Positions 8,430 to 31,697 of a stretch of 31,697 bases of DNA are shown here, one piece after another (within the stretch, counting starts at the first letter, position 1; each line of letters begins with the position of its first letter). This stretch comes from a virus. Below the pieces are notes generated by a model. The model did not search any database. It worked only from the letters and a program-made list of their open reading frames with translations, and was not told the origin of the DNA. Position numbers and translations under genes: made by a program. The stretch lies in the IMG/VR virus record IMGVR_UViG_3300025872_000196, positions 1-31,697 of that record. One strand, given 5' to 3'.

Positions 8430-8457
8430 ACGCCCCTCGGCTATGGCTGGGGGGCGT
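8430..8457 (+). terminator. stem-loop after the tail tube gene
   Basis: ACGCCCC (8430-8436) pairs with GGGGCGT (8451-8457). The stem continues inwards through CTCGGC/GCTGG-type pairs with two G-T wobbles to a TATG loop, about 12 bp in all. It is followed by TCTCGT, not a clean T run. It sits in the 71-bp gap between the tube and chaperone genes and is probably a partial terminator or an mRNA 3'-end stabiliser, so the downstream tail genes are made in smaller amounts. Confidence 0.65.
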
Positions 8458-8476
8458 TCTCGTATCCGGAGGTTCC

Positions 8477-8827: not shown

Positions 8828-9015
8828 CGATGGAGATCGGCTTGACGTGGTGCGGCGACCCCGACGCGTTCTGGCGCTGGCCAACCGAGACGCAGGAGCG
8901 CGTCCTCGGATGGTACAGGGCGCGCCAGCCGGCGCCCAAGAAGCGCAAGAAGGCGTTCCAGCCCCGCGCCGGTGATACGGTAGACCCAGCGGCGCGAGCC
9001 TTTTGGGGGTTGTGA
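8477..9015 (+). CDS. tail assembly chaperone, long form made by -1 frameshift (lambda GT-like)
   Basis: Ribosomes that read GGT TTT (codons 105-106) and slip back one base continue with TAC CGC TCC and stay open to TGA 9013-9015. This gives a 179-residue fusion whose last 73 residues include EIGLTWCGDPDAFWRWPTET and QERVLGWYRARQPAPKKRKK. The downstream frame has no good ribosome site before its first ATG (8830), so translation by frameshift is the simplest explanation. A W-rich, basic T-domain reading DPDAFWRWP with ERVLGWYRA is like the second part of many chaperone pairs. It should bind the tape measure and tube subunits. The frameshift rate cannot be read from the sequence. Confidence 0.78.
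8788..8794 (+). promoter_or_regulatory. programmed -1 ribosomal frameshift site GGGTTTT
   Basis: The heptamer G GGT TTT sits exactly in the X XXY YYZ register of the chaperone gene (codons GGT 8789-8791 and TTT 8792-8794). Both tRNAs can re-pair after slipping one base back (GGG, TTT). The -1 frame is open across this point, upstream as well as down to 9015. The same event in lambda uses GGGAAAG. No convincing downstream pseudoknot was worked out by eye. Confidence 0.8.
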
Positions 9016-11542: not shown

Positions 11543-11545
11543 AAA

Positions 11546-14500: not shown

Positions 14501-14812
14501 ACGCCCGACTTCTTCTACGGGTCATCGACGGGGACGCCTGACCCGACCGCCGCGGCGATGGATGGTCCTGCGCTCATGCGCGGCATCGTGGAGCATGTCG
14601 AGGGCGCGAATACGCCTGTCGTGTACCTGGCATACGCGCCTCGAGTGCAGCTCGCGCAGACGCAGATGGTCGTGCATCCCGACCTCCACCTCTACGGGCG
14701 CATCGTCTCCGATGTGTCCGTGGAGACGGTACAGGGCAAAGAGTGGGGCGGCACGGGTGCGACGGGCGAGATGGTTCGGACGTCTAGCCTGCGCATCGAG
14801 GAGGAGCTGTGA
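11546..14812 (+). CDS. large distal tail or receptor-binding protein with Asp-box-like repeats
   Basis: This 1088-residue protein is the largest in the window and follows the tape measure, so it is likely part of the tail tip or a fibre. ATG 11546 is preceded by GAGGAG. The first half is beta-rich and contains Asp-box-like units: ASIDDGQVWDLQ near residue 206, ASIDGGFSFTLV near 266 and SLDGVTWSVL near 390. Such units mark sialidase-type beta propellers. Around 525-610 a strand-rich stretch (HTVQACFEVDCDSG and YIHVRAWLTNNAG) resembles a laminin-G or concanavalin-like sugar-binding domain. The C-terminal third is beta with repeated glycine turns. Sialidase catalysis is not established; no full set of active-site residues was traced. 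Sugar recognition is the safer idea. Confidence 0.62.
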   Translation: MGTAFTPDALRGILIPDPRIVPSSPALASSYTQADPAPGVPDPTAATALTLETSGSQTNGTTIEVECTRSGGAITTDSVRAGGFAWRESGGYWQGWDGPLGYAGWDTVHTWATGAGADLYTYPHVMFTRDGTRLVVAQKTVAAGSLQTLVVFRRSLVGATSTSTIVTNAITAQALHACIVETPDRLVLLVTYDDLPSVGVQVRAYASIDDGQVWDLQTTACLPAYIDTSTTTVRRLRAAYHAGQVLLVLGVRVPTATVDDTLWQYASIDGGFSFTLVEKVDASDADSVHVGGVQDLYVIPDVGFGMVYCGSSRNTYGANSETLAKRLGSAFQRLTEVEPVEVGLLQPAGNLTVGGALSDDTELCAALDDDGAIYAFAPNTGNSSRVRPAKSLDGVTWSVLGQAANLVHSIDYAGERPASMTCAWYGGACHLVHAVDSTTIYDAQLGVAVLSGYTAATLPMLPAVQSGGDYSAGSYMTWAPYWDPSALGWTTVTVGAPTTTLTGGSMQISAGVGEVRAYVHTRAVALTAAHTVQACFEVDCDSGVTTHTTMVAGTGVNTYKLRIRVTTTQVVVIDFVSGATKMTYNRTAGQYIHVRAWLTNNAGTGKATVAVDEVDGPYGISRGYYRVIDNNSMTDAGAAAAEQSVSIGQTGLGVSNWRYCATQYSSQMGDPHGLTIPEELNGRDFSSRPLTLSQGLRVRAIGGPAALGDLWYIAARFGHGVDALASTSPSVTWRSTDTVSPQVFIWETDSTVANISPLMGPIGALFIGGANFRTATLEGRNSTGGWVSIGTWDAASGQTGLAWDRRSNIVYPRSAAASSGVYWYPHGIMDGARFMFDTAAGPVRAIQYQTEGAWTNAPTKHARLSLFGQMGGVGANGTAGAILSTSGVLLWNNDPQYSAYRLTIPVQFVAETYYEMGVVMLGHLAAFGRRYSWGRSLTSEPNVELRTGSNGRRTSQVLGPTRRGVEFGWSDAADQSAFGVDQTATTPDFFYGSSTGTPDPTAAAMDGPALMRGIVEHVEGANTPVVYLAYAPRVQLAQTQMVVHPDLHLYGRIVSDVSVETVQGKEWGGTGATGEMVRTSSLRIEEEL

Positions 14813-16467
14813 CCGACAGGTGGACACCGAGCCAGTTAGCGGGGACCATCCGCTGGGTGCTCGCCGTCGAGTACGCCGGCGGCACGTGGTACCTGGCTGA
14901 CGAGGCCATGACCGTCGCGTACGGCGCGGGTACGGTCGTGCTGTCTGACGGTCTCCTCGATGTGGCGGGCACGGAGGAGGGCCTTGACCTATGGTCTACC
15001 GACGCGCCGAGGCGTAGCTGTCAGGTGGAGTTCGACCTCGGCCTCGACGTCGCCGAGCTGGTGGAACGCGGGCATGACCTCGCGGGTTGCGTCGCGGAGC
15101 TCGCGCAGCTCGCCGATGGCGACGACTGGGCAGACCGCCGACCCTTCGTGCGCGGTCGGCTTGTCGAGCCGCAGTATGGCGCGGCAGGGGAGGGCGTCCG
15201 CGCCTCCATCGAGCAGGACATCCTGAGCGATGAGACGGAGATCCGCACGGTCGAGTGTGCCGCGCGGGACTTCGGCAACGCGGCCACGGCAGTAACCGGA
15301 CACGCCTACCTCGAGGCTCTAAGCGAGAGCCAGGGCGAAGACGTGCAAGCTTCCATCACGCCGCCGATCATCCTCGGGACTCCCGGTGCCGGGACCATTC
15401 CCGGCTCGCCTGCGACACGCGTCCGGTGGTTCCAGGACGTCGCCTCAGGCGATTACTATTACTACTGGGTCATTGCCGGTCACGCCGTCGAGGCAACCAC
15501 GGTCACTCTTCGCGCGACCGACGGCACCGAGGCCACCTTCCCGGTGTACGTGGTGACCTTGCCCAGCGGCATCGTCGTGTCGTTTGTCATCGACAACGTC
15601 GACGCGGCGTCACCGAGCTGGACCAACACCACCGAGAGCGCCGTCGTCATCTGGGATAACGGCGGCGGGTTGGTCGACCAGAACTACGGACCCCTGCGGT
15701 ACGGCGGCGACTATGTGGCGTGGCTTCTCGCGCTCACCGAGCAGGACATCGACCATGCGCGGGTCAACGTCGCGCGCGAGCAGCTCCGCGGCTACCAAGT
15801 CGCGGCCTACCTGAACGACTCCGTCCTCGTCGCGGACTACATCCGCGAGGTCGTGCTGGACGTCCTCCCGGTGTCCTTCACGGTGGGGCCTCGGGGCGTA
15901 TACCCGTACGTATGGCGGTGGGACGCTACCGTCGCCGATGCCGTGTGCGAGTGGAACCTCACGGAGGACTTCGACATCGCGCGCGAGGGCCTCGTCACGT
16001 ACGAGGACGCCGACAAGATCGTAAACACCCTACAGCTTCGGTACGGTTGGCGTCCTCGGCGAGAGGAGTACGCCTACGAGATGTGGGCAGTGGGCGACCC
16101 TGCCTCGCGCCCTCGCGGGCTGCGCTTTGGTGGCGCGGCATCGCTTGCGCTGTCGTACTGGAGCGACCCGCTCCTCGCGCGCAGCCTGTCCCGGTACGGT
16201 GTGCGCTCTGATGCGCTGGAAACCGCAATCGTCCACGACGACCACACGGCGACGCAGGTCCTCGCGTGGCGCTCGCGTCGGTGGGCGCTACCGTCCCGCG
16301 TGGTGGAGTACGTCGCGGCGCAGCGATGGGGCTGGGTCGAGCCGGGAGACTTCGTGGTGGTCACCGACCCCGAGCTCGCGTGGTCGAAGCGACTGTGCCT
16401 GGTGCAGTCGAGAGCGTGGGCCGAGGACGGGTCGGTGCGATACACTCTGCGCGTCCAGGAGGGCTAA
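14809..16467 (+). CDS. putative tail hub or baseplate protein
   Basis: This 552-residue protein starts at GTG within a GTGA overlap, preceded by GAGGAG. It is beta-rich with many tryptophans. It begins VLAVEYAGGTWYLADEAM, continues with the segment RRSCQVEFDLGLDV, and ends with GWVEPGDFVVVTDPELAW then RYTLRVQEG. A C-terminal domain that reads as D-P-x-D with valine-rich strands is common in hub or tip proteins of siphophages that join the tape-measure end to the fibres. I do not recognise a named family, so the call rests on position, size and general fold. The gene ends 3 bases before the next start. Confidence 0.55.
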   Translation: MTDRWTPSQLAGTIRWVLAVEYAGGTWYLADEAMTVAYGAGTVVLSDGLLDVAGTEEGLDLWSTDAPRRSCQVEFDLGLDVAELVERGHDLAGCVAELAQLADGDDWADRRPFVRGRLVEPQYGAAGEGVRASIEQDILSDETEIRTVECAARDFGNAATAVTGHAYLEALSESQGEDVQASITPPIILGTPGAGTIPGSPATRVRWFQDVASGDYYYYWVIAGHAVEATTVTLRATDGTEATFPVYVVTLPSGIVVSFVIDNVDAASPSWTNTTESAVVIWDNGGGLVDQNYGPLRYGGDYVAWLLALTEQDIDHARVNVAREQLRGYQVAAYLNDSVLVADYIREVVLDVLPVSFTVGPRGVYPYVWRWDATVADAVCEWNLTEDFDIAREGLVTYEDADKIVNTLQLRYGWRPRREEYAYEMWAVGDPASRPRGLRFGGAASLALSYWSDPLLARSLSRYGVRSDALETAIVHDDHTATQVLAWRSRRWALPSRVVEYVAAQRWGWVEPGDFVVVTDPELAWSKRLCLVQSRAWAEDGSVRYTLRVQEG

Positions 16468-16470
16468 GGC

Positions 16471-16857
16471 ATGGCCACGTTCACCAGCACGCTCCACGGC
16501 GAGCGCACCCGCCTCGAGGTCAGCGAGGCGCTCACCAACTACGGGTCCGGTACCCGTCTCGCCATCGAGACCATCGGCAAGGCGTGCCTCGTAGAAGTCA
16601 AGCGGGTCAAGCTGAAGCGCACGGCGGGCACTGCCGCCACGTTCACGCCGCGCATCTACGGGACATCTGGTGCCGTCGCCAACTCCGTGGACATGCAGTT
16701 CGCCGGGAGCTCGACCGCGGTGGCCGACCTCTTCGACGTGGCGACTACGGGCGTGGTGTTCAAGACCGACGCCGTCGGCAAGCTCTACCTTGAGCCAGGA
16801 CCCGTAGCGGGTGCCGATAACGCCTTCGACATCGACGTCGTCCTCGAGGTGCTGTGA
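16471..16857 (+). CDS. small tail-associated protein of unknown function
   Basis: This 128-residue protein has GGAGGG 8 bases before its ATG. It is beta-rich throughout, with ERTRLEVSEALTNYGSG near the start and VKRVKLKRTAGTAATF in the middle, and ends in AFDIDVVLEVL. No membrane segment or catalytic motif is visible. Between the hub-like gene and the fibre genes, it is probably a virion protein at the tail tip. The next gene begins at the overlapping TGATG. Confidence 0.6.
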   Translation: MATFTSTLHGERTRLEVSEALTNYGSGTRLAIETIGKACLVEVKRVKLKRTAGTAATFTPRIYGTSGAVANSVDMQFAGSSTAVADLFDVATTGVVFKTDAVGKLYLEPGPVAGADNAFDIDVVLEVL

Positions 16858-17756
16858 TGGCCGGGACGCAGGTCTTCCCCTCGGTGCCTTCGACGGGTGG
16901 CGGTGGTTCCTCGGCGCTCACGTGGGCGGGGTGGTTCGGTGATGCTGCGGATGGTGACTTCACGGTTACCACGACAGTGCCGCCGTTCTTCAGTCCCGCT
17001 CGCGAGCGCAACTACAACAACCTGACCATCGCGTCCGGCGCCAACATGGCCGTCTCCGGGTTTCGCGTGTACGTCAACGGCACCCTCCAGAACCTCGGGA
17101 CGATTCAGGACAACGGGAACAATGCCGATCTGTCCTCCGGAGGCGGGTCGCTGGCGGCAACGCAATACCTTCGTGGCGCGTCTGGTGGTGGCCCGAACGG
17201 TGGCAGCACGACGGCCAATGGCAATCCCGGCAACTCGAGCAGCAACGCGTCGATCAACAACTCGGGGTTGAACCCGAATGGCGGCGCAGGCGGGAACGCG
17301 GGCGTTCAGACCGGCGGCGCTGGTGGTTCCGCTGGTGTCGCCTCGACGCGATGGGCAGGCCAGCTCATTCAGGCGCGGCAGCAGGTCGGCGCGTTCGGCG
17401 GCGGCGCAGGCGGTGGTTCCGGCGCGGTCGTCACCGGCGGCGGTAGTGCGAACGGCGGCGGCGGCGGCGGCGGCGGCGGCGTGGTCTGGCTCGCGGCGCG
17501 CGTGCTGGACAACGCGAGCGGCACGATCTCCGCGCGCGGCGGCAACGGCGGCAACGGTTCCGGCGCTGCGCCTGGTATCGCAGGCGGCGGCGGCGGCGGC
17601 GGCGGCGGGCTCGTCGGAATCGTGTCGACCACGCCGTCGGCGTCGATGGGCGGAACCATCACGGCGGCAGGCGGCACGGGCGGCACTGGCTTCAACGGCG
17701 GCGGCGCTGGTGTGGCCGGGAACGCTGGCTCCGTCAACTACCTCATTCTCGGGTGA
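16857..17756 (+). CDS. glycine-rich putative tail adhesin
   Basis: This 299-residue protein starts at ATG 16857. The first 80 residues are beta-rich (FGDAADGDFTVTTTVPPFFS). From about residue 95 it is dominated by glycine with alanine, asparagine and serine, including runs of nine or more glycines near residues 200 and 243. Polyglycine-rich regions of this sort occur in tail-tip adhesins such as T-even gp38, where they form packed polyglycine helices carrying the variable receptor loops. Similarity here is of composition, not proven homology. The glycine runs are encoded by pure GGC repeats, which may vary in length without breaking the frame. It ends in NYLILG. Confidence 0.6.
   Translation: MAGTQVFPSVPSTGGGGSSALTWAGWFGDAADGDFTVTTTVPPFFSPARERNYNNLTIASGANMAVSGFRVYVNGTLQNLGTIQDNGNNADLSSGGGSLAATQYLRGASGGGPNGGSTTANGNPGNSSSNASINNSGLNPNGGAGGNAGVQTGGAGGSAGVASTRWAGQLIQARQQVGAFGGGAGGGSGAVVTGGGSANGGGGGGGGGVVWLAARVLDNASGTISARGGNGGNGSGAAPGIAGGGGGGGGGLVGIVSTTPSASMGGTITAAGGTGGTGFNGGGAGVAGNAGSVNYLILG
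17453..17480 (+). repeat. CGG/GGC trinucleotide repeat, first tract
   Basis: Nine CGG units in a row, read in frame as consecutive GGC glycine codons of the glycine-rich adhesin. Only one codon is used although glycine has four, which makes the tract prone to slipped-strand change by whole codons. Confidence 0.9.
17583..17606 (+). repeat. GGC trinucleotide repeat, second tract
   Basis: Eight GGC codons in a row, 103 bases after the first tract and in the same gene, followed by GGG. It encodes a second polyglycine run. Recombination or slippage between or within the two tracts would keep the reading frame. Confidence 0.9.
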
Positions 17757-17759
17757 CCT

Positions 17760-17960
17760 ATGACGAAGTACCTTGTGGTCGCGGTTGGCACGCCCTCGCA
17801 GGATGCGACGGCCCTCGCCGTGGCGAATGGCTGCGTCGGCTTCTACACCGGCATCCCGCCCGTGTGGTCGGAGCTCGCCGCGGCGCAGGGCTGGACCCTG
17901 CCGTGCGTGGTGACTGAGGACGAGAACGGCGCGGTCGTCTCCTGGGCACCGGTGGCCTAG
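17760..17960 (+). CDS. small hypothetical protein among fibre genes
   Basis: This 66-residue protein (MTKYLVVAVGTPSQDATALA at the start) follows the glycine-rich gene by 3 bases. It appears to be a compact alpha/beta unit with a VGTPSQD turn, a glycine-cysteine pair (NGCVGFY) and a final strand ENGAVVSWAPVA. Its stop shares one base with the GTG of the next gene, so it is translated in the fibre operon. No family is recognised; it may be a fibre chaperone or a small tip protein. Confidence 0.6.
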   Translation: MTKYLVVAVGTPSQDATALAVANGCVGFYTGIPPVWSELAAAQGWTLPCVVTEDENGAVVSWAPVA

Positions 17961-18484
17961 TGGCGCGGCTTCCTGTTTACCGGGACTACAAGACCACGAA
18001 GGTCGCCGCAGTCCTCAAGGCGGGGCAGAACGTCACGATTACGGACGCCGTCGTCGGCGACGTGGTCGAGGTTACCATCGGAGCCTCGGGCGGTGGTGGA
18101 GGAGGGGGCGGGACGCCTGCCTCGTCGGTCGTGAGCGAGACGACCTACGGGCAGCAGACCGCAGTGGGGACCTCCACCGACTACGCTAGGGCAGACCATA
18201 GCCACGGGAGCGTGTCGCTTCCCGCGCATAGCTCCACCACGGGCCTTGCGTGGACGAGCTCGGGCCACACGGGTAGCTCCACGGCGGTAGCCGCGTGGAA
18301 TGGCAACGGGAACGCCTCAGTCGTGCAGGCGACCGCCGACGAGACGATGCTTGTACGACGCGCGGGCGTACTTCAGTGGGTGCCCCTCATCGTCGGCATC
18401 GCCGTGTACGCCGACTTCACTGGGGACAGTGGCGTCTACCAAGACGAAACGTCGCCTGAGCTCTACATCGGGACGGTGATCTGA
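17960..18484 (+). CDS. tail fibre-type protein
   Basis: This 174-residue protein starts at GTG 17960. It has an N-terminal beta unit (about 45 residues), a glycine hinge (GGGGGGGG near 45-52), and then the segment TTYGQQTAVGTSTDYARADH followed by SHG. That last pattern, ending in A-D-H-x-H-G, is widespread in phage tail fibres, where the histidines may bind metal along a trimeric shaft. The C-terminus is beta-rich (LVRRAGVLQWVPLIVG). The gene overlaps the next start (TGATG). A trimeric fibre or fibre-linker role is likely. Confidence 0.7.
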   Translation: MARLPVYRDYKTTKVAAVLKAGQNVTITDAVVGDVVEVTIGASGGGGGGGGTPASSVVSETTYGQQTAVGTSTDYARADHSHGSVSLPAHSSTTGLAWTSSGHTGSSTAVAAWNGNGNASVVQATADETMLVRRAGVLQWVPLIVGIAVYADFTGDSGVYQDETSPELYIGTVI

Positions 18485-19461
18485 TGGCACTAACTCCGCT
18501 TACTCACCGACGACTCGCCACGGTCACGTCGGCAGGACTGACGATCAGCCAGGTACTCGACGCAGTCTGGGCTGGCGTGGCGCCAACGGTGACGACCTAT
18601 TCTGATGGTTCTACCCGCTTGTTTTCGGGAACGGGCGCCACCGGCTGGACGTGGACTCTCGTACAGGTCGGAGGCGTCACCGAAGCCGTGTGGGCAAAGC
18701 CGCCGGGTGGCTCTCTCGAGCAGCGGTTCATTCTCGCCGGACGCTCTGCTATCCCGACGCCCAACCCGATCATGCTGTCCCCGGAAACGTTCCTAAACTC
18801 GGGCCTCCATCTGGGTCTGGCGTTGAACGCTGGCGCCTTCACGACATGGAACGGTTCGGCGCCATTCACGAGCGGCTACTTCAGTGGGTACACGCGTCTC
18901 GGACAGGCCGTCACCACGATGTCAACCAGCGTCACGATGACGATCTACGAGTCTCAGGAGGACATCACGGTAGAACTCGTCGCCGGCGGCACGGCCATCA
19001 TGCTCTGCGGCGGCGGCGCCTACGTGGACCCGGATACCTCCGCAGCCCTTGCCGCCGAGAGTGATGGGCGTCGGTACGGCCTCTGGACCGGCGGCACGAC
19101 CGCACCGACGACGTACCTGGCCAACGCCACGAACGGCAACATCTTCACCCACAGCGCCTCTGCCGGTAACGTCTCGCACACGTACCTGAAGCGCCAGGGC
19201 ACGAACACCACGGATGCCGCCCGCCGCATGTGGTTTACCGCCACGCCTACGATCTCCGAGATGACGAACGCGGCGGGGGAGCTGGTCGGCATCCCCATCC
19301 CCATCGCCTCGACGGTGGCGTATGGTGGGCGGCTTCGCGAGAAGACATTTGTGCGCGGGATGCTCCGCAATCAGATCGTCAGCAACGCCGGAGTGACGGT
19401 GGGCTACGCCCTGGCACCGAGTACGACGACGACCGGTGACTGCATCCTCTTGAAGTATTGA
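18484..19461 (+). CDS. putative tail fibre or virion surface protein
   Basis: This 325-residue protein is translationally coupled to the fibre gene before it. It starts with a short helix (LTPLTHRRLATVTSAG), then is strand- and threonine-rich, with GWTWTLVQVGGVTEAVWAKP near residue 57 and a mid part containing AIMLCGGGAYVDPDTS. A jelly-roll or beta-sandwich domain is suggested but no family is recognised. The last residues (DCILLKY) resemble the hydrophobic ends of head or fibre proteins. Position says host-contact region; it could be a receptor-binding tip. Confidence 0.5.
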   Translation: MALTPLTHRRLATVTSAGLTISQVLDAVWAGVAPTVTTYSDGSTRLFSGTGATGWTWTLVQVGGVTEAVWAKPPGGSLEQRFILAGRSAIPTPNPIMLSPETFLNSGLHLGLALNAGAFTTWNGSAPFTSGYFSGYTRLGQAVTTMSTSVTMTIYESQEDITVELVAGGTAIMLCGGGAYVDPDTSAALAAESDGRRYGLWTGGTTAPTTYLANATNGNIFTHSASAGNVSHTYLKRQGTNTTDAARRMWFTATPTISEMTNAAGELVGIPIPIASTVAYGGRLREKTFVRGMLRNQIVSNAGVTVGYALAPSTTTTGDCILLKY

Positions 19462-21482: not shown

Positions 21483-21832
21483 TGGCCGTCACCCTCGCGC
21501 CTACGCACCTACCGCACGTACAGATCGTCGTTACCGGCGCATCGGGTACAGTTACGGAGGTCATCCTCCCCACGACGCGTCATCTCGCGATGAACCTGCA
21601 CAACCGCGACAACGCCTCGAAGAACGCGATGGTCTCCTTTGACCAGACGCTGGTCGATGGAGGCGCGGCGCCCGCCTCGGGCGGGTGGAGCATCGACAAC
21701 TATCTGAACTACAACGTCAACGGTAACGGCGCGAATGGGATGCCGAGCGTGACGAAGTTCTTCGTCTTCTCGCTTTCGCATAACGACGTTACCATCGAGG
21801 TTCTCCTGACGACAAGCAAGCCCGCCAACTAG
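21482..21832 (+). CDS. small hypothetical protein, probable virion or accessory protein
   Basis: This 116-residue protein is beta-rich (HVQIVVTGASGTVTEVILPT then asparagine- and glycine-rich turns SIDNYLNYNVNGNGANGM) and ends in IEVLLTTSKPAN. It could be a decoration or fibre-type protein displaced behind the lysis genes. Its stop codon overlaps the stop codon of the convergent sliding clamp gene within the 4 bases CTAG, leaving no space for a terminator between the two operons. Confidence 0.6.
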   Translation: MAVTLAPTHLPHVQIVVTGASGTVTEVILPTTRHLAMNLHNRDNASKNAMVSFDQTLVDGGAAPASGGWSIDNYLNYNVNGNGANGMPSVTKFFVFSLSHNDVTIEVLLTTSKPAN

Positions 21833-22935
21833 TCCAGGCGTACCGGCATCACCACGTAGAACGCCGACGCGTCTCCTCGCGGCTCGAGAATGAGCGGCGC
21901 AATAGCACCGCCGCTCTTCATCACGACGTCCCCTTCGGGACAGGCCGCGAGAGCATCGCCGATGAATGCGGCATTGAGCCCGAGGGAGAGCGGCGTATCG
22001 GCCTCGCACGGGACCTCGTCTCGCGCCGACATCACGTCAGCCTGAGTGGCGCTTAGCACCAGACCATCGCTACCGAACGAGAAACGCACCGCCTTCGCGT
22101 TGTCTCGGGCTGCGAGCTTCACGCGCTTGAGCGCGTTCCCGACGGCGTCGCGGTCAACGATGAACCGATGCTTGTGCGTAGCGGGGAGGACTTCCTTGTA
22201 CGACGGAAAGTCGGCTTCTAGGAGGCGCACGTAGAGGCTCGCCACGGCGCCCCAGTGGATGTGTACCACCTTGTCGCCGTACTTCATCTGCACGACGTCC
22301 TCGACGTCCCCGAGGAGGCGCAGGAGCTCCGCGGCGCCACGACGCGGGAACAGCGAGCGCCTCGGGAGGTCGCCCTGGTGCGTCGCCGATACCTCCACGC
22401 GTGCGAGACGGGACCCGTCCGTGGTGACCATGCCGAGCGCGCCCTGAACCAGCTCGAGGTGCACGCCGCCGAGCATGTACCGGCTGTCGTCGTCAGCCAT
22501 CGCGTGCGACACGGCGCGTAGCCCGCGGCGCAGGTCTGCCGCAGACACGGTGATGGTACACGCAGAGGCATCGACCTGCGCCGTCGGCGGGAACTCTTCG
22601 GTCGGGAGCGTGGGCAGCTTGAACGTGGAGCGCCCCGCAGCCACCTCGAGCATCGTCTCCCGCAGAGTCATGGTGACGGAGCCTGCGGGGAGCACGGACG
22701 CCACGTCCCTTAGGCGCGAGGCATCCACGCAGACGCGGAGCTGGTCGCTCACCACGTCGACCGGGTACAGGCCCACGAAGGTGCAGACCGTGTCGCGTGC
22801 GGTCACGAGAAGCTGACCCGCTCCGTTGACGTGGAGGAGGGCGGCTGCGCCGATGGGCGCGCCCGACTTGTCGGCGATGCTGGCGGCACGGTTCGCCGCC
22901 TGGGCGAGGACCGCCCTGTCAATGATGATGCGCAC
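21829..22935 (-). CDS. dnaN: DNA polymerase III sliding clamp (beta subunit)
   Basis: This 368-residue protein is the full length of a bacterial clamp, the ring that tethers polymerases and repair factors to DNA. GTG at 22935 was chosen: a GGAG site lies 7 bases upstream, the product starts RIIIDRAVLAQ as clamps do, and its G is shared with the TAG of the gene before. The three similar domains can be followed; a central SRYMLGGVHLEL, then TTDGSRLARVEV and VDRDAVGNALKRVKL are clamp signatures. It ends YVVMPVRLD, close to the usual M-P-M-R-L end. It lies last in the minus-strand recombination operon. No DNA polymerase gene is present here, so it must serve a host polymerase or another partner. 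Confidence 0.9.
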   Translation of the reverse strand: MRIIIDRAVLAQAANRAASIADKSGAPIGAAALLHVNGAGQLLVTARDTVCTFVGLYPVDVVSDQLRVCVDASRLRDVASVLPAGSVTMTLRETMLEVAAGRSTFKLPTLPTEEFPPTAQVDASACTITVSAADLRRGLRAVSHAMADDDSRYMLGGVHLELVQGALGMVTTDGSRLARVEVSATHQGDLPRRSLFPRRGAAELLRLLGDVEDVVQMKYGDKVVHIHWGAVASLYVRLLEADFPSYKEVLPATHKHRFIVDRDAVGNALKRVKLAARDNAKAVRFSFGSDGLVLSATQADVMSARDEVPCEADTPLSLGLNAAFIGDALAACPEGDVVMKSGGAIAPLILEPRGDASAFYVVMPVRLD

Positions 22936-23246
22936 TAGCGAGCTCCTGCCTGCCGGATGCGGCAGTCCCAAAGGTGTTCGGAGGTGGGGGCGAGACAGGC
23001 GGGACACTGGTCCGTGTCTCCGATGTACAGCGAGGCAGGCTCGGCCATGACCTCGGCAAGGGTGGCGAGCTGGGCGCGGTCGTGCAGGAGAGCGCGCTCC
23101 TGCTCCTCGGCGAAGGCTTCGACCTCGTCAAGCTGCACCATGCAGACCTTGACCGCGTTGATGTGAGCGATGCGCCGCTCCATCGTGTACTTGTGGAGCA
23201 CGGCCTCCAGGCGCTGCCGCATCATGTGCGACGAGATCAGCGCCAC
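22935..23246 (-). CDS. small hypothetical protein with C-terminal cysteine motif
   Basis: This 103-residue protein is set to start at GTG 23246, with GAGG 6 bases upstream, overlapping the Gp157-like gene by 10 bases. The first 70 residues are helical (RQRLEAVLHKYTMERRIAHI then EEQERALLHDRAQLATLAEV). The end holds C-P-A-C and a later cysteine (DQCPACLAPTSEHLWDC), which with a nearby histidine could bind zinc. It lies between a Gp157 protein and DnaN and is therefore probably part of recombination or replication. No family is recognised. Confidence 0.6.
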   Translation of the reverse strand: MALISSHMMRQRLEAVLHKYTMERRIAHINAVKVCMVQLDEVEAFAEEQERALLHDRAQLATLAEVMAEPASLYIGDTDQCPACLAPTSEHLWDCRIRQAGAR

Positions 23247-23748: not shown

Positions 23749-24462
23749 TCAGAAGGGAAAGCCGCGGTCGTCTTCCGCGGGAGGAGGGGCATCGAGTAGG
23801 GGCTCACGCGTCGAGGGGACAGGGCCTGCGGCCTTCTCGGTATGCTTCCAGATGACGCCCTGGCAGGCCTTGTCCCGGCATTTGAAATCGGGAGCCTTCG
23901 GATTCATCTCGCCTGCGGCCTTCTTCGGACGGTTGTCCCACATCTTCCCGGAGCAGGTCGGGCAGACGGGGTCGATACCGGGAGGCGTCGAGGAGGGCGC
24001 GGCCTGCGGACGCGGAGCTGGTGCTTGGTGAGGCGCGGCCTGTGGACGAGGCATTGGGGCGGGCGTGCCGGCGGCGTGGCCATCGTCGTCGTCGCCGGGA
24101 GCTACGCCGACCGCCGCTGCCAGCGCGTACCGGCGCAGGTAGGTCACCACGGAGCCCGCCGCCTGGGCGCTGCCGTCCTTCGGCATGGCTGCGGCGACCG
24201 AGATGATGTGCTGCCCGCTGGCGTGCATGAGCGCCGTGGTCACGGTCACGGTGCCATCCTCGAGGCGACCGGGGTGCTGTGAGACGCTCAGGCCGTTTGA
24301 CGCCAGGGCGACGCGGCACGCGTCCCAGACGCTGGCGAGGTCGGCGTAGTTGCTGCGGAACGCCGGGTTCTGGCGGTCCTTGACCGCCGGCTGGATCTGC
24401 GCCTGCGCCTTCGCGAGCGCGGTGGCGAGCTGGTCGAGCTCAGGAGACATGTGCTGAATCAT
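23749..24462 (-). CDS. ERF-family single-strand annealing protein with zinc motif and SSB-like tip
   Basis: This 237-residue protein should pair single strands during phage recombination. Residues 10-125 are the ERF core (AFRSNYADLASVWDACRVAL near 35-54, LMHASGQHIISVAAAMPKDG near 78, then GSVVTYLRRYALAAAVGV). A proline/alanine linker (132-165) follows, then a zinc-type set C167, C170, C195 and C200, and the acidic end AEDDRGFPF. Its last residues resemble the SSB C-terminal tip (D-D-x-I-P-F), which docks repair proteins. The start is ATG 24462 with GGAG 8 bases upstream, an ATGA overlap with the gene before. Confidence 0.85.
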   Translation of the reverse strand: MIQHMSPELDQLATALAKAQAQIQPAVKDRQNPAFRSNYADLASVWDACRVALASNGLSVSQHPGRLEDGTVTVTTALMHASGQHIISVAAAMPKDGSAQAAGSVVTYLRRYALAAAVGVAPGDDDDGHAAGTPAPMPRPQAAPHQAPAPRPQAAPSSTPPGIDPVCPTCSGKMWDNRPKKAAGEMNPKAPDFKCRDKACQGVIWKHTEKAAGPVPSTREPLLDAPPPAEDDRGFPF

Positions 24463-24704
24463 GCGGAGAACTCCGGTGCTAGTACGAGGATGCCCGAGGG
24501 CGTGACGTGCGTGATCGTCCCCTTGAGGGACGGAGAGGGTTCCCACTCCCACCCGAGCATCGTCTTCCCGCGAGGAGGCGCACCGAGCGTCACCACGGCG
24601 CGTCCTGCGTCGTAGTGCACGTGGGTGACGAGCTCCGCGTGGTGCTCGAGGAGGAACGTGAGGAGGTTCGTGAGGGCGAGGGCGTGGGTAGTCATGCCCA
24701 CCAT
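24459..24704 (-). CDS. small hypothetical protein, first gene of the minus-strand operon
   Basis: This 81-residue protein begins with a helix (ALALTNLLTFLLEHHAELVT) and then has strands (AVVTLGAPPRGKTMLGWEWE). Its start is uncertain: ATG 24704 lacks a Shine-Dalgarno site, and ATG 24695 has only GGTGG too close in front. It may be translated from a leaderless or very short-leader message starting in the 46-bp divergent gap. Its stop overlaps the ERF start by ATGA. No function is recognised. Confidence 0.6.
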   Translation of the reverse strand: MVGMTTHALALTNLLTFLLEHHAELVTHVHYDAGRAVVTLGAPPRGKTMLGWEWEPSPSLKGTITHVTPSGILVLAPEFSA

Positions 24705-24714
24705 GTACTAGGGT

Positions 24715-24731
24715 ATTGCGGTCCCCGCAAT
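24715..24731. promoter_or_regulatory. operator-like palindrome ATTGCGG-N3-CCGCAAT
   Basis: Two perfect 7-base arms with a TCC spacer lie between the divergent XRE regulator and recombination operons. The inner TTGCGG/CCGCAA matches the second site at 25412-25430 (TTGCAG/CTGCAA) with the same 3-base spacer. It is well placed to repress either transcript. Likely bound by the XRE protein, though this is inference. Confidence 0.7.
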
Positions 24732-24732
24732 C

Positions 24733-24744
24733 GCACTATAGTGC
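24733..24744. promoter_or_regulatory. perfect palindrome GCACTATAGTGC containing a -10-like TATAGT
   Basis: This 12-base perfect palindrome contains TATAGT (24737-24742), a near -10 box. A transcript from it would start about 24749, only about 2 bases before the XRE ATG at 24751, giving an essentially leaderless message. No Shine-Dalgarno site is seen there, which agrees. TTGCGG at 24716-24721 is the possible -35 with a short 15-base spacer. Confidence 0.5.
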
Positions 24745-24750
24745 AGTTCC

Positions 24751-24972
24751 ATGACCAGACTCGGAGAGTACATACAGGAGCGGCGCACCGACCTCGGCCT
24801 CACGCGGGCCGACCTCGCGCGCGAGCTCAAGGTCCACAAGGCGCAGATCCAACGGTGGGAGGAGGGCACGTGGTGCCCTCGCCCGACGACGCTTGTTGCC
24901 CTGGCGCGCGTGCTGGGGATGCCGCCGCACGAGCTCATGATGATGCAGGTCGGGGACGTGGAACCTCCATGA
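24751..24972 (+). CDS. XRE-family transcriptional regulator
   Basis: This 73-residue protein is a single helix-turn-helix unit of the HTH_3 (Cro/C1) type: GEYIQERRTDLGLTRADLAR then ELKVHKAQIQRWEEGTWCPR, with the turn near residues 20-40 and LVALARVLGM after it. It has no separate dimerisation domain, so it resembles Cro or small P22 C2-like proteins in size. No ribosome site is seen in front of its ATG, suggesting a leaderless transcript. It probably binds one of the palindromes just upstream and controls both divergent operons. Confidence 0.85.
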   Translation: MTRLGEYIQERRTDLGLTRADLARELKVHKAQIQRWEEGTWCPRPTTLVALARVLGMPPHELMMMQVGDVEPP

Positions 24973-25397
24973 CCGCCGACTACGTCATCGGCCTCGTGCC
25001 GCGCGGTGCCTCGCGTCCTCGAGCTGCACGAGGTGGAGGGCGTGTCTACATGCCTCCCGAACACCGCGCGTGGATGGATGCCGCCGTTACCATGCTGCGC
25101 GAGCAGCGGCGCGGTGAGCCCATCGCCGAGCCTGTCGAGCTCGAGGTCATGGCCTATTGGCCGTTGCCGAAGGCGAGGCCGGCGTGGTGCGACAAGGAAC
25201 GCTGGGCGCTGCGCGGACAGGTCGGGGGTATCGCCTACGCCACCAAGCCCGACCTCGACAACGTCGGGAAAATCGTCATGGACGCCCTGGTCGAAGCCGG
25301 CATCCTCGAGGATGACCGCTTCGTGGTCGAGTTGAACATGTCGAAGCGCGCCGTGCCCGAGACTGGCCGCATCGACGTATGGCTCACTCCCGTCTAG
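24969..25397 (+). CDS. rusA: RusA-family Holliday junction resolvase
   Basis: This 142-residue protein resolves four-way DNA junctions. The RusA core is visible as ATKPDLDNVGKIVMDALVEA (residues 91-110) followed by GILEDDRFVVEL, with acidic residues D95, D97, D105 and D115-D116 and K101 in the positions expected for metal binding and catalysis. It starts by ATGA overlap with the XRE gene, so both are made together. It complements the ERF, Gp157 and clamp genes on the other strand, giving a phage recombination and replication set. Confidence 0.88.
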   Translation: MTADYVIGLVPRGASRPRAARGGGRVYMPPEHRAWMDAAVTMLREQRRGEPIAEPVELEVMAYWPLPKARPAWCDKERWALRGQVGGIAYATKPDLDNVGKIVMDALVEAGILEDDRFVVELNMSKRAVPETGRIDVWLTPV

Positions 25398-26645: not shown

Positions 26646-26697
26646 CCGTGAGACGTGACCCTCGTCTCGGGTCTTCTTCAGGGGTCACGTCTCACGG
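26646..26697 (+). terminator. 16-bp perfect inverted repeat, strong stem-loop
   Basis: CCGTGAGACGTGACCC (26646-26661) and GGGTCACGTCTCACGG (26682-26697) are perfect complements around a 20-base loop. The RNA would form a very stable stem. It falls right after the last small-gene stop and before the methyltransferase module. No T run follows, so it is either a structural insulator, an attenuator or the edge of an acquired segment. Confidence 0.65.
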
Positions 26698-26714
26698 TCT
26701 CGCGCGGGGGAACG

Positions 26715-26731
26715 TGTAAGCGTTTCTTACA
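26715..26731. promoter_or_regulatory. short dyad TGTAAG-N5-CTTACA before the methyltransferase
   Basis: Six-base arms with a CGTTT spacer lie 36 bases upstream of the methyltransferase start, in an AT-richer leader. It may be an operator or part of a promoter for the methyltransferase-helicase pair. No convincing -35/-10 set was found. Confidence 0.4.
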
Positions 26732-26766
26732 AGTTCTCAGGACATTCAACATCAAGGAGCAGCATC

Positions 26767-27732
26767 ATGACGACCATCGAAAACGACGACTACACCATCT
26801 CCAACATGGATTGCATTCCAGGATTGATGAGCCTGCCGCACAAGTCCATAGACCTCGCGGTGTTCTCTCCTCCATTCTCGTCTCTCTACGCATACACCGC
26901 CGCAGATGCGGACATGGGCAATAGCCGCGAGAGTGACGACGAGTTCCTCCTGCACTTTGAGTTCTTCGCGGAGGCGCTGGCGCCTCTAATCAAGCCCGGC
27001 AGGAACGTTTGCCTCCACATTCAGCAGGTCTCGCGATTCAAGTCGAACCACGGCTACATGGGCTTGTTCGATATCCGAGGAGCGGTCATCCGAAAGATGG
27101 AGGCGGCTGGACTGCACTACTATGGAGACGTCACCATTCCGAAAAACCCGCAAGCGCAATCGATCCGCACGAAGTCCGCGTGCCTCACGTTTACAAACTT
27201 CGAGCGGGACTCGATGATCTCACGGCCTGCGCTTGTCGACTACCTGCTCGTATTCAAGGCTCCAGGCGAAAACATCGTCCCGGTACGACAAGATGGTAAG
27301 GACGGCTCGGTCAGCCGTGACGAGTGGATACAGTACGCCGAGGGCGTATGGGGACCATGCGACGATACTTCAGACGTAGATCTGTTTGCCGGCATGTTCG
27401 AGCGAGGAGAGCCGCTCGGCGTATGGACAGGCATTAAGGAAACGGACACGCTCAACACCGATGCGGCTAAGAGCGACCAAGATGAGCGCCACGTCTGCCC
27501 TCTACAATTGCCATTGATCGAACGATGCATCCGTCTATGGTCCAACAAAGGAGAGACGGTTCTCTCACCATTCATGGGTGTCGGCAGTGAGGGATACAAG
27601 GCATTGGAGCTTGATCGCAAGTTCATCGGGTTCGAGCTGAACCCTCGATACTTCGGGGTGGCGCGCAAGAACCTAGACCGCGTGCTCGCATCTCGTGGCG
27701 CGCAGATGGTTTTGTTCGGAGGTGCGAAGTGA
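26767..27732 (+). CDS. DNA methyltransferase, beta-class N4-cytosine/N6-adenine type
   Basis: This 321-residue enzyme should methylate an amino group of cytosine or adenine. Motif IV appears as SPPF (34-37) near the N-terminus and the AdoMet-binding motif I as SPFMGVGS (267-274) near the C-terminus, the order of beta-class enzymes (PF01555 type). HVCPLQLPLIERCIRLWS (242-259) precedes motif I as usual. Motif I begins S-P-F rather than the common D-P-F. SPP motifs lean to N4-cytosine, but target and specificity cannot be read. AAGGAG lies 7 bases upstream. It overlaps the helicase gene by 4 bases, and no restriction endonuclease is nearby. Confidence 0.85.
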   Translation: MTTIENDDYTISNMDCIPGLMSLPHKSIDLAVFSPPFSSLYAYTAADADMGNSRESDDEFLLHFEFFAEALAPLIKPGRNVCLHIQQVSRFKSNHGYMGLFDIRGAVIRKMEAAGLHYYGDVTIPKNPQAQSIRTKSACLTFTNFERDSMISRPALVDYLLVFKAPGENIVPVRQDGKDGSVSRDEWIQYAEGVWGPCDDTSDVDLFAGMFERGEPLGVWTGIKETDTLNTDAAKSDQDERHVCPLQLPLIERCIRLWSNKGETVLSPFMGVGSEGYKALELDRKFIGFELNPRYFGVARKNLDRVLASRGAQMVLFGGAK

Positions 27733-29123
27733 CCGCCGAAGAAGTGCGCATCGACATCCCGCACGGTCCCGAGGGATACGACCTATTCATCGGATGCAAG
27801 CGTTTGGCTACCTACCGCGTGGAAGGGAGGACCGTAGTCACCGATGCTACAAGCTACGCCGCGGTTTTTGGCGGTAAGATCGACACAAAGTCGATCATCT
27901 TCGATGCGCCGCACCTCATGGACTTTCAGGCGTACCTGGTGCAACGGGCTCTAGAACGGCGTCGTTTCGCGATCTTTGCTGACTGTGGCCTCGGCAAAAC
28001 TGCGATGTTCCTCGCATGGGCGCACGCAGTCGAGAAGCACGGGAAGGTGCTGATACTATGCCCTCTGGCGGTACTGAAGCAGATCAAGCGCGAGTCTGAG
28101 CGTTTCCACGGGACGACGCTGGTGGACCTGCGCGCCGGAGAGGCGTGGACTAGCGGGATCGCGATCATGAACTACGAGAGCCGTCGCGACATCGACATGC
28201 GTGGCGTTGCGGGCATCATCCTAGATGAGTCCAGCATCTTAAAGAACGACGCAGGTGAGACGCGCGACTTCCTCATCTCCCTGTCCTCGAACATCCCCTA
28301 CCGTCTGGCCACGTCGGCCACTCCCGCGCCCAATGACCATGCCGAATACGCGAGCCATGCGGTATTCCTCGGCTATGCGCGCACCGCAAAGGAGTTCTAC
28401 TCGCAGTTCTTCCGTAAGGACGGAGCCGATTGGATACTTCGTGGTCACGCCATCGAGCCGTTCTATCGGAATCTGTCTGCGTGGAGCACGTACATGCACA
28501 GCCCACGCGCCCTCGGGTTCAAGCAGACTACGGAGATGGGCGACGAGCCAGACTACATCTTCAAGCATGTAGCCGTCCACTCTGGGTTCAAGGTTAGGAG
28601 CGGCAATATGTTCGCGTCGGCTGAGTCGGCAGAGGACAGGTCGTTCGTGTTTGGCGAGCTCAGGTCTACACCGGGACCGCGTCTCTCGGCTATCGGCGAG
28701 TACCTGCAAGGCAAGCGAGGCATCATCTGGTGCGGGAGGAACGCGGAGGAAGATGCAATCCGCGCGATGCTTGGAAAGGACGTTCCCGTGGTCAACGGAG
28801 CCATGCCTGTCGAGGAGCGCGTGGAGATTGTCGATGCGTACCGCGCGGGGTCCATCCGGCACATCATCAGCAAACCGAAGGTGCTCGGGTTCGGCGTGAA
28901 CATCCCCGAATGTGACCACATGGTCTATTCGGGCTTCGGCTGGAGCTTCGAGCAGGTATACCAAGCCGTGCGTCGTGCTCATCGATATGGGCGTACCGGA
29001 CGCCTAGAGGTCATGTTCCCATTCACAGACCCCGAGGCTCCCGTGCTGAAGGTCCTACGCGAGAAGATGGACAGATTCTCGGGTGACGTACAGATCATGC
29101 AGGGCAGGTTCTGGCGGGGGTGA
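27729..29123 (+). CDS. SNF2/DEAD-like superfamily 2 helicase
   Basis: This 464-residue protein carries helicase motifs: Walker A DCGLGKT (85-91), DESS (166-169) as motif II, SATP (196-199) as motif III, and a C-terminal motif V/VI region with KVLGFGVNIPECDHMVY (384-400) and YQAVRRAHRYGRTG (411-424). It is SNF2-like in type, with a short insertion and no nuclease domain. The GTG start overlaps the methyltransferase stop, and the pair shares an AT-richer composition. Its partner and substrate are unknown; it could remodel DNA for methylation, protect the genome, or act in replication or anti-restriction. Confidence 0.85.
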   Translation: MTAEEVRIDIPHGPEGYDLFIGCKRLATYRVEGRTVVTDATSYAAVFGGKIDTKSIIFDAPHLMDFQAYLVQRALERRRFAIFADCGLGKTAMFLAWAHAVEKHGKVLILCPLAVLKQIKRESERFHGTTLVDLRAGEAWTSGIAIMNYESRRDIDMRGVAGIILDESSILKNDAGETRDFLISLSSNIPYRLATSATPAPNDHAEYASHAVFLGYARTAKEFYSQFFRKDGADWILRGHAIEPFYRNLSAWSTYMHSPRALGFKQTTEMGDEPDYIFKHVAVHSGFKVRSGNMFASAESAEDRSFVFGELRSTPGPRLSAIGEYLQGKRGIIWCGRNAEEDAIRAMLGKDVPVVNGAMPVEERVEIVDAYRAGSIRHIISKPKVLGFGVNIPECDHMVYSGFGWSFEQVYQAVRRAHRYGRTGRLEVMFPFTDPEAPVLKVLREKMDRFSGDVQIMQGRFWRG

Positions 29124-29126: not shown

Positions 29127-30002
29127 TTGACGATGTGCGCGTATGCCCTGCGCTATGCAGCGGCGGGGATGCGTGTGCATCCCCTGTACGAAGTAGACCC
29201 GGGCACACAGACCTGCGCTTGCCAATCAGGCGCGTCGTGCACCGAGAAGCAACGCGGCAAACATCCGCGCCTCGGAGGCTGGCAGCAAAAGGCGACTACT
29301 GACGCCGACGAGGTCCGCGCATGGTGGTCGCGATGGCCGCGTGCGGGCGTGGGCCTCGCCACGGGCAGCGCCTCCCGGTGCTGGGTGCTGGACCTCGACG
29401 GGCCTGAGGCGGGCGCGTGGTACGAGGCGCAGGTCGCGCGGCACGGGCTTACGCGCACGCTGGGCGTGCACACCTCGCGAGGTTTTCACCTCTATTGGAG
29501 GTGGTCGCCCGACGCGATGGTACGGAACGCCCAGGGGCTGAAGGCTGTGGGCGCACCGAACGTCGACGTGCGCGGCGAGGGCGGGTACGTCTGCGCCCCG
29601 CCGACGGTGCATCGCAGCGGGCACGTGTACGCGTGGGAGACGCAGCTTGGCGCGTTTCAGCGGGAAATGGTCGAGGCTCCGGCGTGGCTGCTCGACATCG
29701 TGAAGGAGAAGCCGAAGCCGAAGCGGGAGTTCCAAGCGCCGGCCTGGGCAGTCACCGAGCACGAGCTCGCGAGAGAGATCCGCACGCGTCTCGACCACGA
29801 CGAGCGCCTCCGGCAGACCGTGGGGCTAGAGCTCGGCGGGACCTTCCGTCCGGCGGCACGCCCATATGTGGATGACTTGCGGTGTCCGAACTGCGGAGAC
29901 CGAGAAGCTTGGTACTACATCGACGCAGGCCCCGTGGTCTGCCATCATCGCAACTCGTGCGGATGGGCGGGAAGCCTTGACGCGCTCAGGAGGCAATCGT
30001 GA
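29127..30002 (+). CDS. bifunctional primase-polymerase with zinc-ribbon end
   Basis: This 291-residue protein starts at TTG 29127 (GGGGG 6 bases upstream), or at ATG 29133. The N-terminal prim-pol domain (PF09250 type) shows a cysteine-rich loop C30-x-C32 and C38 before KHPRLGGWQ, the metal pair D89 and D91 in VLDLDG, H121 in TSRGFHLYW and D147 in NVDVRGEGGYV. The end has C253, C256, C272 and C278, a zinc ribbon like that which helps primases choose start sites. It would lay primers at the phage origin. It overlaps the helicase gene after it. Confidence 0.9.
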   Translation: MTMCAYALRYAAAGMRVHPLYEVDPGTQTCACQSGASCTEKQRGKHPRLGGWQQKATTDADEVRAWWSRWPRAGVGLATGSASRCWVLDLDGPEAGAWYEAQVARHGLTRTLGVHTSRGFHLYWRWSPDAMVRNAQGLKAVGAPNVDVRGEGGYVCAPPTVHRSGHVYAWETQLGAFQREMVEAPAWLLDIVKEKPKPKREFQAPAWAVTEHELAREIRTRLDHDERLRQTVGLELGGTFRPAARPYVDDLRCPNCGDREAWYYIDAGPVVCHHRNSCGWAGSLDALRRQS

Positions 30003-31252
30003 CCGACGCAGACATCGCCGCCCTCGCGGGCATTACCGTCCTCCCGATGGCGCGCGACGCCGCGGTGTGGGACATGCTGGACCGCAGCGCGGACAAGTTC
30101 GACGGGAAGACCGGCGCGCTCATCCGTCCCGGTGACCCGAAGGGCCACCGCGATAACGTCCAGCTCATTCTCGCGCATGACCCGTGGTGGGCGACCGCGT
30201 TCGCGTACAACACGCTCTCCGAGCGCGTGGAGTGGGTGCGCCGGGATGGTGAGACGGTCGCCGTCGATGACCACCACGAAGCGGAGATCGGGCTGACGCT
30301 CGCGAGGCAGTACGGCATCCACGCACCGACGGCGGTAGTGCACGAAGCCGTCGCGTGGGCGGCGCACCGCCATACCTACAGCCCCGTCGAGGACTACCTC
30401 GAGGCGTTGGAATGGGACGGGGTCGAGCGCATATCCACGTGGTGCTCGCGCTACCTCGGTGCGCCTGCCGACCAAGTGACGCAGGCGATGGGCCGCGCGT
30501 GGCTTATTCAAGCGGTGGCACGTGCACTGAACCCCGGATGCAAGGCCGACACGGTGCTCATCCTGCGAGGACGCCAGGGGAGCGGGAAGAGCACGTCCCT
30601 CGCCATCCTCGGCGGTGATTGGTTCCGAGACACGCCCATCGACCTCGCGAGCAAAGACCGCTTCTCGGCCCTACAGGGCGCGTGGATCTACGAGCTGGCC
30701 GAGCTCGACTCTTTGCGTCGTGCGGAGGCTCAGACGCTAAAGGCGTTCGTCTCCTCGCAGCGGGACTCCTATCGTCCGAGCTACGGACGGAACACGCGCG
30801 ACGTCCCGCGCACGACGGTCTTCGCAGGGACGACGAACGACGACGAGTTCCTACAGGACGCAACGGGCTCGCGCCGTTGGTGGGTCATCGAGACGACCAC
30901 GTGCGACGCGCCCACCCTGCGACAGGACCGGGACCAGCTCTGGGCCGAAGCCGTCCACGCGTACCGTCAGGGCGAAGGCTGGCACCTTGAGACCGACCTC
31001 GAGGAGAGCCGCGCCGTCATGGCGCAACGGTACGAGGTGAGCGATCCGCTGGCTGCGCCGTTTGAGCTTTGGTGCGACGCGCGGCATGACTTCACGGTCT
31101 CGGAAGCGTGGGCTGCGCTGGGCTACCTTACGCCGCCTCTGGCTCGAGATGGTCAACGCCTGGGCAAGCTGATCCGCCAGCTCGGGCTTCACGTCGCGGG
31201 GAAGGTTGTGCGGAACGGGAAGCGCGTCAACGGGTACAAGCTCGCCGACTAA
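29999..31252 (+). CDS. VapE/D5-type replicative helicase
   Basis: This 417-residue ATPase is of the virulence-associated E/phage D5-like type (PF05272 pattern). Walker A is GRQGSGKS (191-198), a Walker B-like WIYELAELD follows (229-237), the sensor motif TTVFAGTTN ends in N280, and an arginine-finger pair R292-R293 lies in GSRRWW. The N-terminal 120 residues probably bind DNA or the primase. The start is GTG with AGGAGG 5 bases upstream. With the prim-pol in front and an iteron cluster just behind, it is the likely origin-opening or unwinding helicase. Confidence 0.9.
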   Translation: MTDADIAALAGITVLPMARDAAVWDMLDRSADKFDGKTGALIRPGDPKGHRDNVQLILAHDPWWATAFAYNTLSERVEWVRRDGETVAVDDHHEAEIGLTLARQYGIHAPTAVVHEAVAWAAHRHTYSPVEDYLEALEWDGVERISTWCSRYLGAPADQVTQAMGRAWLIQAVARALNPGCKADTVLILRGRQGSGKSTSLAILGGDWFRDTPIDLASKDRFSALQGAWIYELAELDSLRRAEAQTLKAFVSSQRDSYRPSYGRNTRDVPRTTVFAGTTNDDEFLQDATGSRRWWVIETTTCDAPTLRQDRDQLWAEAVHAYRQGEGWHLETDLEESRAVMAQRYEVSDPLAAPFELWCDARHDFTVSEAWAALGYLTPPLARDGQRLGKLIRQLGLHVAGKVVRNGKRVNGYKLAD

Positions 31253-31339
31253 GCCGCGTCGTGTCCACCCTTGCTGTTTGGTGTCCACCCTTGTGTCCAC
31301 CCTTGTCCACCCTCAAGGATGTAGTCCCCGTCTAGGTTG

Positions 31340-31356
31340 TCTAGGGTGTCCACCCT
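31340..31356 (+). repeat. TCTAGGGTGTCCACCCT repeat, first copy
   Basis: A 17-base unit whose second copy at 31472-31488 differs by one base. Each contains AGGGT and ACCCT arms, so each is itself an inverted repeat around an iteron core. Confidence 0.85.
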
Positions 31357-31471
31357 GTCCGGGTAACTTTAAACTTTTAGAGAGAATAGAAAGAGAGAGA
31401 GAGACATGGAAACGCGTGGACAGGGTGGACAGGGTGGACAGAACCTACGGCGATGCAGTCGGCGTCTACGT

Positions 31472-31488
31472 TCTAGGGTGTTCACCCT
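31472..31488 (+). repeat. TCTAGGGTGTTCACCCT repeat, second copy
   Basis: Second copy of the 17-base unit, with TTC instead of TCC. It is followed by CACCCTT (31483-31489) pairing with AAGGGTG (31498-31504) across an 8-base loop. Confidence 0.85.
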
Positions 31489-31697
31489 TGCCGGCGTAAG
31501 GGTGGACAGGGTGGACACTGTGGACGGCGTAGACCATCGGGCTAGACTTGACCTCGAGCGTGCGGTCCTCGGCATGGTGCCTGGGGACCGCGTCCTCCGA
31601 TGCGCTCGGACGATAGCGCAGCCCTGTCCAAGTCAGCCTTGCCTCGCGGGCAGGGTTGTCGTGTGTCTGGGGGCCTCCATACCCCGACCTCCTTCGC

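What the first reader, a model, noticed from the sequence alone, without database searches (positions are those of the whole stretch)
26767..29123. Acquired methyltransferase plus SNF2-type helicase pair
Seen: the two overlapping genes are visibly more AT-rich and use more A/T-ending codons than neighbours (one sampled 60-base stretch is about 57% GC, against about 65% elsewhere by eye). They follow a large inverted repeat, and there is no restriction endonuclease. Known: phages carry orphan methyltransferases to evade host restriction, and methyltransferase-helicase pairs resemble parts of defence or anti-defence systems. Inferred: a transferred module for genome protection or epigenetic control, where the helicase may open DNA or displace host complexes for the methyltransferase.
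Basis: partly seen in the sequence, partly recalled or inferred. Interest (0 to 1): 0.72.

Follow-up and report, generated by a model that had tools for sequence, protein, structure and literature searches.

The report
Phage DNA-marking enzyme and its motor
Two overlapping phage genes encode a DNA-methylating enzyme and a partner motor that runs along DNA; relatives of this pair, often fused into one protein, occur in phages of very different bacteria and archaea, so it is a known kind of phage module whose real job has not been tested.

Summary
26767-27732 encodes a beta-class amino-methyltransferase (catalytic SPPF, so predicted cytosine-N4). 27729-29123 encodes a Snf2-type dsDNA translocase and overlaps it by 4 nt. 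The pair has 58.3% GC against 67.3% for the rest, the lowest stretch of its length in the window. A 16-bp perfect hairpin and a second palindrome lie upstream. No restriction enzyme was found.

The pair is not a private acquisition. Of 160 relatives found by the helicase alone, 157 have the methyltransferase within 3 kb; the other 3 run off the contig end. Half (80) are one fused protein. Layout switched repeatedly on the methyltransferase tree, so the two work as one unit. The window has the rarer MTase-first order and belongs to a supported clade with it.

Neighbours are phage replication and recombination genes; here a Prim-Pol, a VapE helicase and an iteron-like array follow. The recognition-domain region shows almost no swapping.

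Best reading: an ATP-driven self-methylation complex of the early module, probably anti-restriction. It would work like the P1 DarB methylase-helicase dyad but is not a member (beta SPPF, not gamma NPPY/F). Phage fusions of this kind are already annotated, so novelty is modest; substrate, motif and purpose remain untested.

The parts
26767..27732 (+). Beta-class DNA amino-methyltransferase, 321 aa; motif IV SPPF (res 34-37), AdoMet motif I PFMGVGSE (res 268-275); predicted cytosine-N4
   Evidence: Pfam/PHROG; motif IV precedes motif I; 28 invariant columns in 80 relatives; AlphaFold2 model pLDDT 87.6, pTM 0.87, best PDB matches TTHA0409 Z 26.0, bdelloid N4CMT Z 23.3, M.PvuII Z 22.3
27729..29123 (+). 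Snf2-type ATPase/translocase, 464 aa; GLGKT, DESS, SATPA and QAVRRAHRYG motifs; no room for a nuclease domain
   Evidence: the fused relative's helicase part matches INO80 at Z 32.0 and ISWI at Z 31.0
27729..27732 (+). 4-nt overlap GTGA (start of helicase, stop of MTase), the layout of translational coupling
26646..26697 (.). Perfect 16-nt inverted repeat with 20-nt spacer upstream of the MTase; hairpin
26710..26736 (.). Second palindrome GAACGTGTAAG-CGTTT-CTTACAAGTTC between the hairpin and the ribosome-binding site; operator-like
   Evidence: read, paired in the fold
26755..26760 (+). Ribosome-binding-like AAGGAG before the MTase ATG
   Evidence: sequence
29127..30002 (+). Prim-Pol primase directly downstream (context)
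   Evidence: Pfam Prim-Pol E 1.4e-38
29999..31252 (+). VapE/D5-like helicase, the likely replicative helicase (context)
   Evidence: Pfam VapE-like_dom E 1.2e-79
24507..25397 (+). RusA Holliday-junction resolvase upstream (context)
   Evidence: Pfam RusA E 1.3e-20

Best explanation
The two genes make one complex: a cytosine-N4 (possibly adenine-N6) DNA methyltransferase carried or positioned by a Snf2-type motor that moves along double-stranded DNA using ATP. It is expressed with the phage's replication module and methylates the phage's own DNA as it is copied. The most likely benefit is that progeny genomes leave the cell marked and resist host restriction, as the P1 DarB methylase-helicase dyad protects P1 DNA. 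Shown here: both catalytic cores are intact, the coupling is obligate, there is no nuclease, and the context is a phage early/replication region. Inferred: methylation of cytosine N4, use of the motor during methylation, and the anti-restriction purpose.
For: Coupling: 157 of 160 loci found by helicase similarity alone carry the MTase within 3 kb (80 fused, 71 helicase-first, 6 MTase-first), and the 3 exceptions are cut by contig ends. In the reverse test, 79 of 80 MTase-found loci carry the helicase, the last being truncated. The label 'fused' needs 16 changes on the tree, at least 10 of them forced by well-supported branches, so fusion/fission recurred while the pair was kept. MTase and helicase identities co-vary (r 0.84 among split pairs). 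Catalysis: SPPF in 236 of 252 MTases; GxGKT and DESS are kept. Snf2 fold. Phage association: 312 of 50,697 phage records against 14 of 72,556 plasmids. Neighbours are DnaB, YqaJ, RecT, RusA, NinG, SSB, Prim-Pol and C5 methylases, with no restriction enzyme in the top lists apart from HNH/NUMOD-type endonucleases. Literature: SPPY shared by most N4C enzymes, with APPA abolishing activity (PMC8885841); DarB dyad as antirestriction (PMC5512222).
Against: No methylation was measured and no target motif is known. The recognition region is almost never swapped between close relatives (3 of 1592 pairs). That is odd for an enzyme meant to match varied host restriction sites and could point to a constant regulatory mark. 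DarB is a virion protein; nothing shows that these proteins are packaged. In type III restriction systems the motor serves cleavage more than methylation.
Confidence: 0.52

Rival explanations
1. Replication/recombination control: the translocase remodels replicating phage DNA and the MTase lays a constant epigenetic mark, such as timing of origin firing, strand discrimination or packaging, rather than defeating restriction.
For: Neighbours are replication and recombination genes. In the window the pair directly precedes Prim-Pol, VapE and an iteron-like array. The recognition region is stable across hosts.
Against: DnaB or VapE already supply the replicative helicase in the same regions. The pair accompanies several unrelated replication systems (DnaB, Prim-Pol/VapE, DUF3987/DUF927), so it is not tied to one replisome.
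Confidence: 0.27
2. A phage-carried exclusion or defence system that acts against competing phages, like a restriction system without its nuclease (compare type III Mod/Res, BREX, HMA).
For: Motor plus MTase resemble parts of such systems; weak PADLOC profile matches to ZorD, DpdE and BrxHI/II helicases.
Against: No nuclease or further effector gene nearby; located in the early lytic module; the PADLOC matches are generic helicase similarity.
Confidence: 0.1
3. Two independent genes that happen to be neighbours, recently acquired because the region is AT-rich.
For: Low GC relative to the window.
Against: Obligate linkage and repeated fusion; the pair averages only 1.5 points below its surroundings elsewhere.
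Confidence: 0.02

Closest known systems
Phage helicase/methylase fusion proteins (PHROG_16; annotated 'DNA helicase/methylase' or 'helicase/methyltransferase fusion' in actinobacteriophages such as Sarma624 and Gorpy)
   Same: Both halves are homologous: the helicase matches PHROG_16 at 275-589 and the MTase at 763-912; phages such as FCV-1, S-CBS3 and vir525 have the same two domains in one protein.
   Different: In the window the two are separate genes in reverse order (MTase first). The best-known actinobacteriophage fusions are more distant and showed no SPPF match.
Split helicase-then-methylase pairs of cluster F mycobacteriophages and Gordonia phages (Whouxphf, GMA1, Holliday, prophiFSQJ01-1)
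   Same: Closest named MTases (46-50% identity) with an adjacent homologous helicase.
   Different: Helicase comes first there; the window helicase has an N-terminal insertion (about residues 27-57) that they lack.
Phage P1 DarB methylase-helicase dyad (polyvalent proteins)
   Same: DNA MTase coupled to a SWI2/SNF2 ATPase in a phage; DarB protects DNA in cis from type I restriction (PMC5512222).
   Different: DarB has a gamma-class adenine MTase with NPP(Y/F), the LPD36 domain, and is a virion component; this one is beta-class SPPF, compact, in the early module.
Type III restriction enzymes (Mod/Res, EcoP15I, Mbo45V)
   Same: Beta-class MTase plus SF2 motor, MTase gene first; Mod structures match the MTase model at Z 19.5-19.8.
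   Different: No nuclease domain, and the motor is Snf2-type.
Bdelloid rotifer N4CMT
   Same: Beta-class fold (Z 23.3) and SPPY-type motif shown to make 4mC.
   Different: Fused to a chromodomain, in an animal; no motor.

Membership tests
Beta-class DNA amino-methyltransferase (N6_N4_Mtase) | Pfam match above the curated cut-off and motif IV before AdoMet motif I | tested here: met
   65.3 bits vs 26.7; SPPF at 34, PFMGVGSE at 268
Cytosine-N4 methyltransferase | Methylates cytosine N4 | not testable with these tools
   Only the SPPF motif predicts it (PMC8885841)
Snf2 family ATPase | Two RecA-like lobes closest to Snf2 ATPases | tested here: met
   Pfam SNF2-rel_dom 29.4 vs 24.9 bits; profile best hit Sulfolobus Snf2 1z63; fused relative INO80 Z 32.0, rmsd 3.1, 370 aligned
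Phage helicase/methylase pair (PHROG_16-like) | Helicase and MTase both homologous and linked | tested here: met
DarB methylase-helicase dyad | Gamma-class adenine MTase with NPP(Y/F) | tested here: not met
   SPPF and beta order; DarB features from PMC5512222
DarB methylase-helicase dyad | Packaged virion protein | not testable with these tools
   The location in the replication module does not suggest it
Type III restriction-modification | Res subunit carries a nuclease domain | tested here: not met
   The helicase C-domain ends at 421 of 464 aa; no nuclease family found
HMA (helicase-methylase-ATPase) defence system | HmaA, HmaB (m5C) and HmaC together | tested here: not met
   HmaA match only E 0.01; MTase is of the amino class; no third gene

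The most novel reading that the evidence does not exclude
The pair is a dedicated, motor-driven DNA self-marking machine with one conserved (or relaxed) target, spread through phages of bacteria and archaea; motor-dependent m4C methylation lets a phage label its own replicating DNA against many defences at once, by a mechanism distinct from restriction-modification and from DarB.
Probability: 0.22. Interest if true: 0.7.

Novelty: new member of a known kind. Interest (0 to 1): 0.4.

Why it matters
The pair is extremely common in phages, yet I found no paper that tests what it does. Showing that a Snf2 motor and an amino-methyltransferase are kept together through repeated fusion and fission makes a clear, testable claim: the motor is needed for methylation. 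If so, it is a general phage strategy for marking DNA, relevant to host range, restriction evasion and the methylation seen in gut phages.

Tried and rejected
Single-sequence scans of IMG/VR found few relatives; profile scans were needed. Direct membership of BREX, Zorya, Dpd or HMA was rejected because only generic helicase similarity appeared. The 'no target recognition domain' idea was dropped: the region is short but present, so I claim only lack of swapping. Other copies of the hairpin arm: matches up to 3 mismatches are at chance level. Papers on gut-phage methylomes did not mention helicases. Two family scans failed on a wrong frame and were repeated.

Full report
What is there. The window is a 31.7-kb virus record. 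Two co-directional genes overlap by 4 nt: 26767-27732 (321 aa) and 27729-29123 (464 aa). The first matches Pfam N6_N4_Mtase and PHROG DNA methyltransferases; the second matches SNF2-rel_dom, DEAD and Helicase_C. The MTase has SPPF at 34-37 and PFMGVGSE at 268-275, the beta-class order. The helicase has GLGKT, DESS, SATPA and QAVRRAHRYG. The pair is 58.3% GC against 67.3% for the rest, the lowest stretch of its length. Upstream are a perfect 16-nt inverted repeat and a second palindrome, folding with z -4.4 against shuffles.

It is an obligate phage pair. Both proteins hit phage records with nearly the same host tallies (Mycobacterium 146 and 146, Flavobacterium 85 and 85, Arthrobacter 27 and 27). 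Annotated relatives are split (Whouxphf, GMA1, Holliday, prophiFSQJ01-1) or fused (FCV-1, S-CBS3, Charlie, Sarma624, Gorpy, phi297, archaeal virus vir525). Searching by helicase profile alone gave 80 IMG/VR and 80 GTDB loci. 157 of the 160 have the MTase within 3 kb, and the three without it end at the contig edge. Searching by MTase gave 79 of 80 with the helicase. These are the best-scoring relatives, not a random sample, and a few loci share contigs. On a maximum-likelihood MTase tree of 96 rows, the fused label needs 16 changes, of which at least 10 are forced by supported branches. The window sits in a supported (98/96) clade of MTase-first loci with L007, L032, L033/L112 and L185. L007 is the same pair at 83% (MTase) and 79% (helicase) identity.

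Structure. The MTase model (pLDDT 87.6, pTM 0.87) matches TTHA0409 at Z 26.0, MboIIA 23.5, CcrM 23.4, bdelloid N4CMT 23.3, M.PvuII 22.3 and EcoP15I Mod 19.8. A fused relative from L090 (pLDDT 85.9, pTM 0.77) shows a Snf2 motor at about 22-431 (INO80 Z 32.0), a long helix at 400-436, and the MTase at 454-729 (TTHA0409 Z 26.8).

Evolutionary signals. MTase and helicase identities correlate at r 0.81 overall and 0.84 among split pairs. SPPF is kept in 236 of 252 MTases. In 1592 close pairs the recognition region averages 66% identity against 71% for the core, and only 3 pairs differ by more than 30 points. So there is little sign of specificity switching. This favours a constant or relaxed target and is the main unresolved point for the anti-restriction reading.

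Context. Among 232 neighbouring ORFs the commonest Pfam families are DnaB, C5 DNA methylase, YqaJ, HTH domains, RecT, RusA, NinG, SSB and Prim-Pol. In the window the pair lies between RusA and Prim-Pol/VapE. The separate replicative helicase argues that the Snf2 protein is not the replicative one.

Mechanism. Snf2 ATPases run along duplex DNA without separating it; the paper on polyvalent proteins states this and proposes a type-III-like role for the DarB dyad (PMC5512222). I infer the same division of labour here: the motor moves or positions the MTase on phage DNA. The SPPF motif predicts cytosine-N4 (PMC8885841). The benefit is probably protection from restriction (0.52), with a replication or epigenetic role next (0.27).

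Novelty. Phage helicase/methylase fusions are already annotated and PHROG_16 holds them; the dyad concept is published for DarB with another MTase class. The window adds a member with the rarer gene order. No paper I could find (open-access library only) tests the function of this beta-class pair.

Noticed in passing
window 31263-31516: Nine exact copies of GTCCACCCT (0.23 expected by chance) in two opposed groups around an AT-rich, AG-repeat stretch (31364-31404), just after the VapE gene: looks like an iteron-type replication origin.
   Followed up: partly
window 21829-23007 (-) and 23749-24552 (-): A sliding-clamp (DNA polymerase III beta) homologue and an Erf-like annealing protein on the opposite strand to most genes.
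   Followed up: no
window 26710-26736: Palindrome TGTAAG-N5-CTTACA with longer GAAC/GTTC arms, between the hairpin and the ribosome-binding site of the MTase; possible operator.
   Followed up: no
L007:54-947: A C5-type cytosine methyltransferase (PCQPF by eye) lies upstream of the same pair in the closest relative; C5 methylases are also among the commonest neighbours elsewhere.
   Followed up: partly
window 2088-19461: Most large structural-region ORFs have no or only weak PHROG matches, so the phage is far from described ones; its terminase is only about 25-28% identical to known phages.
   Followed up: partly
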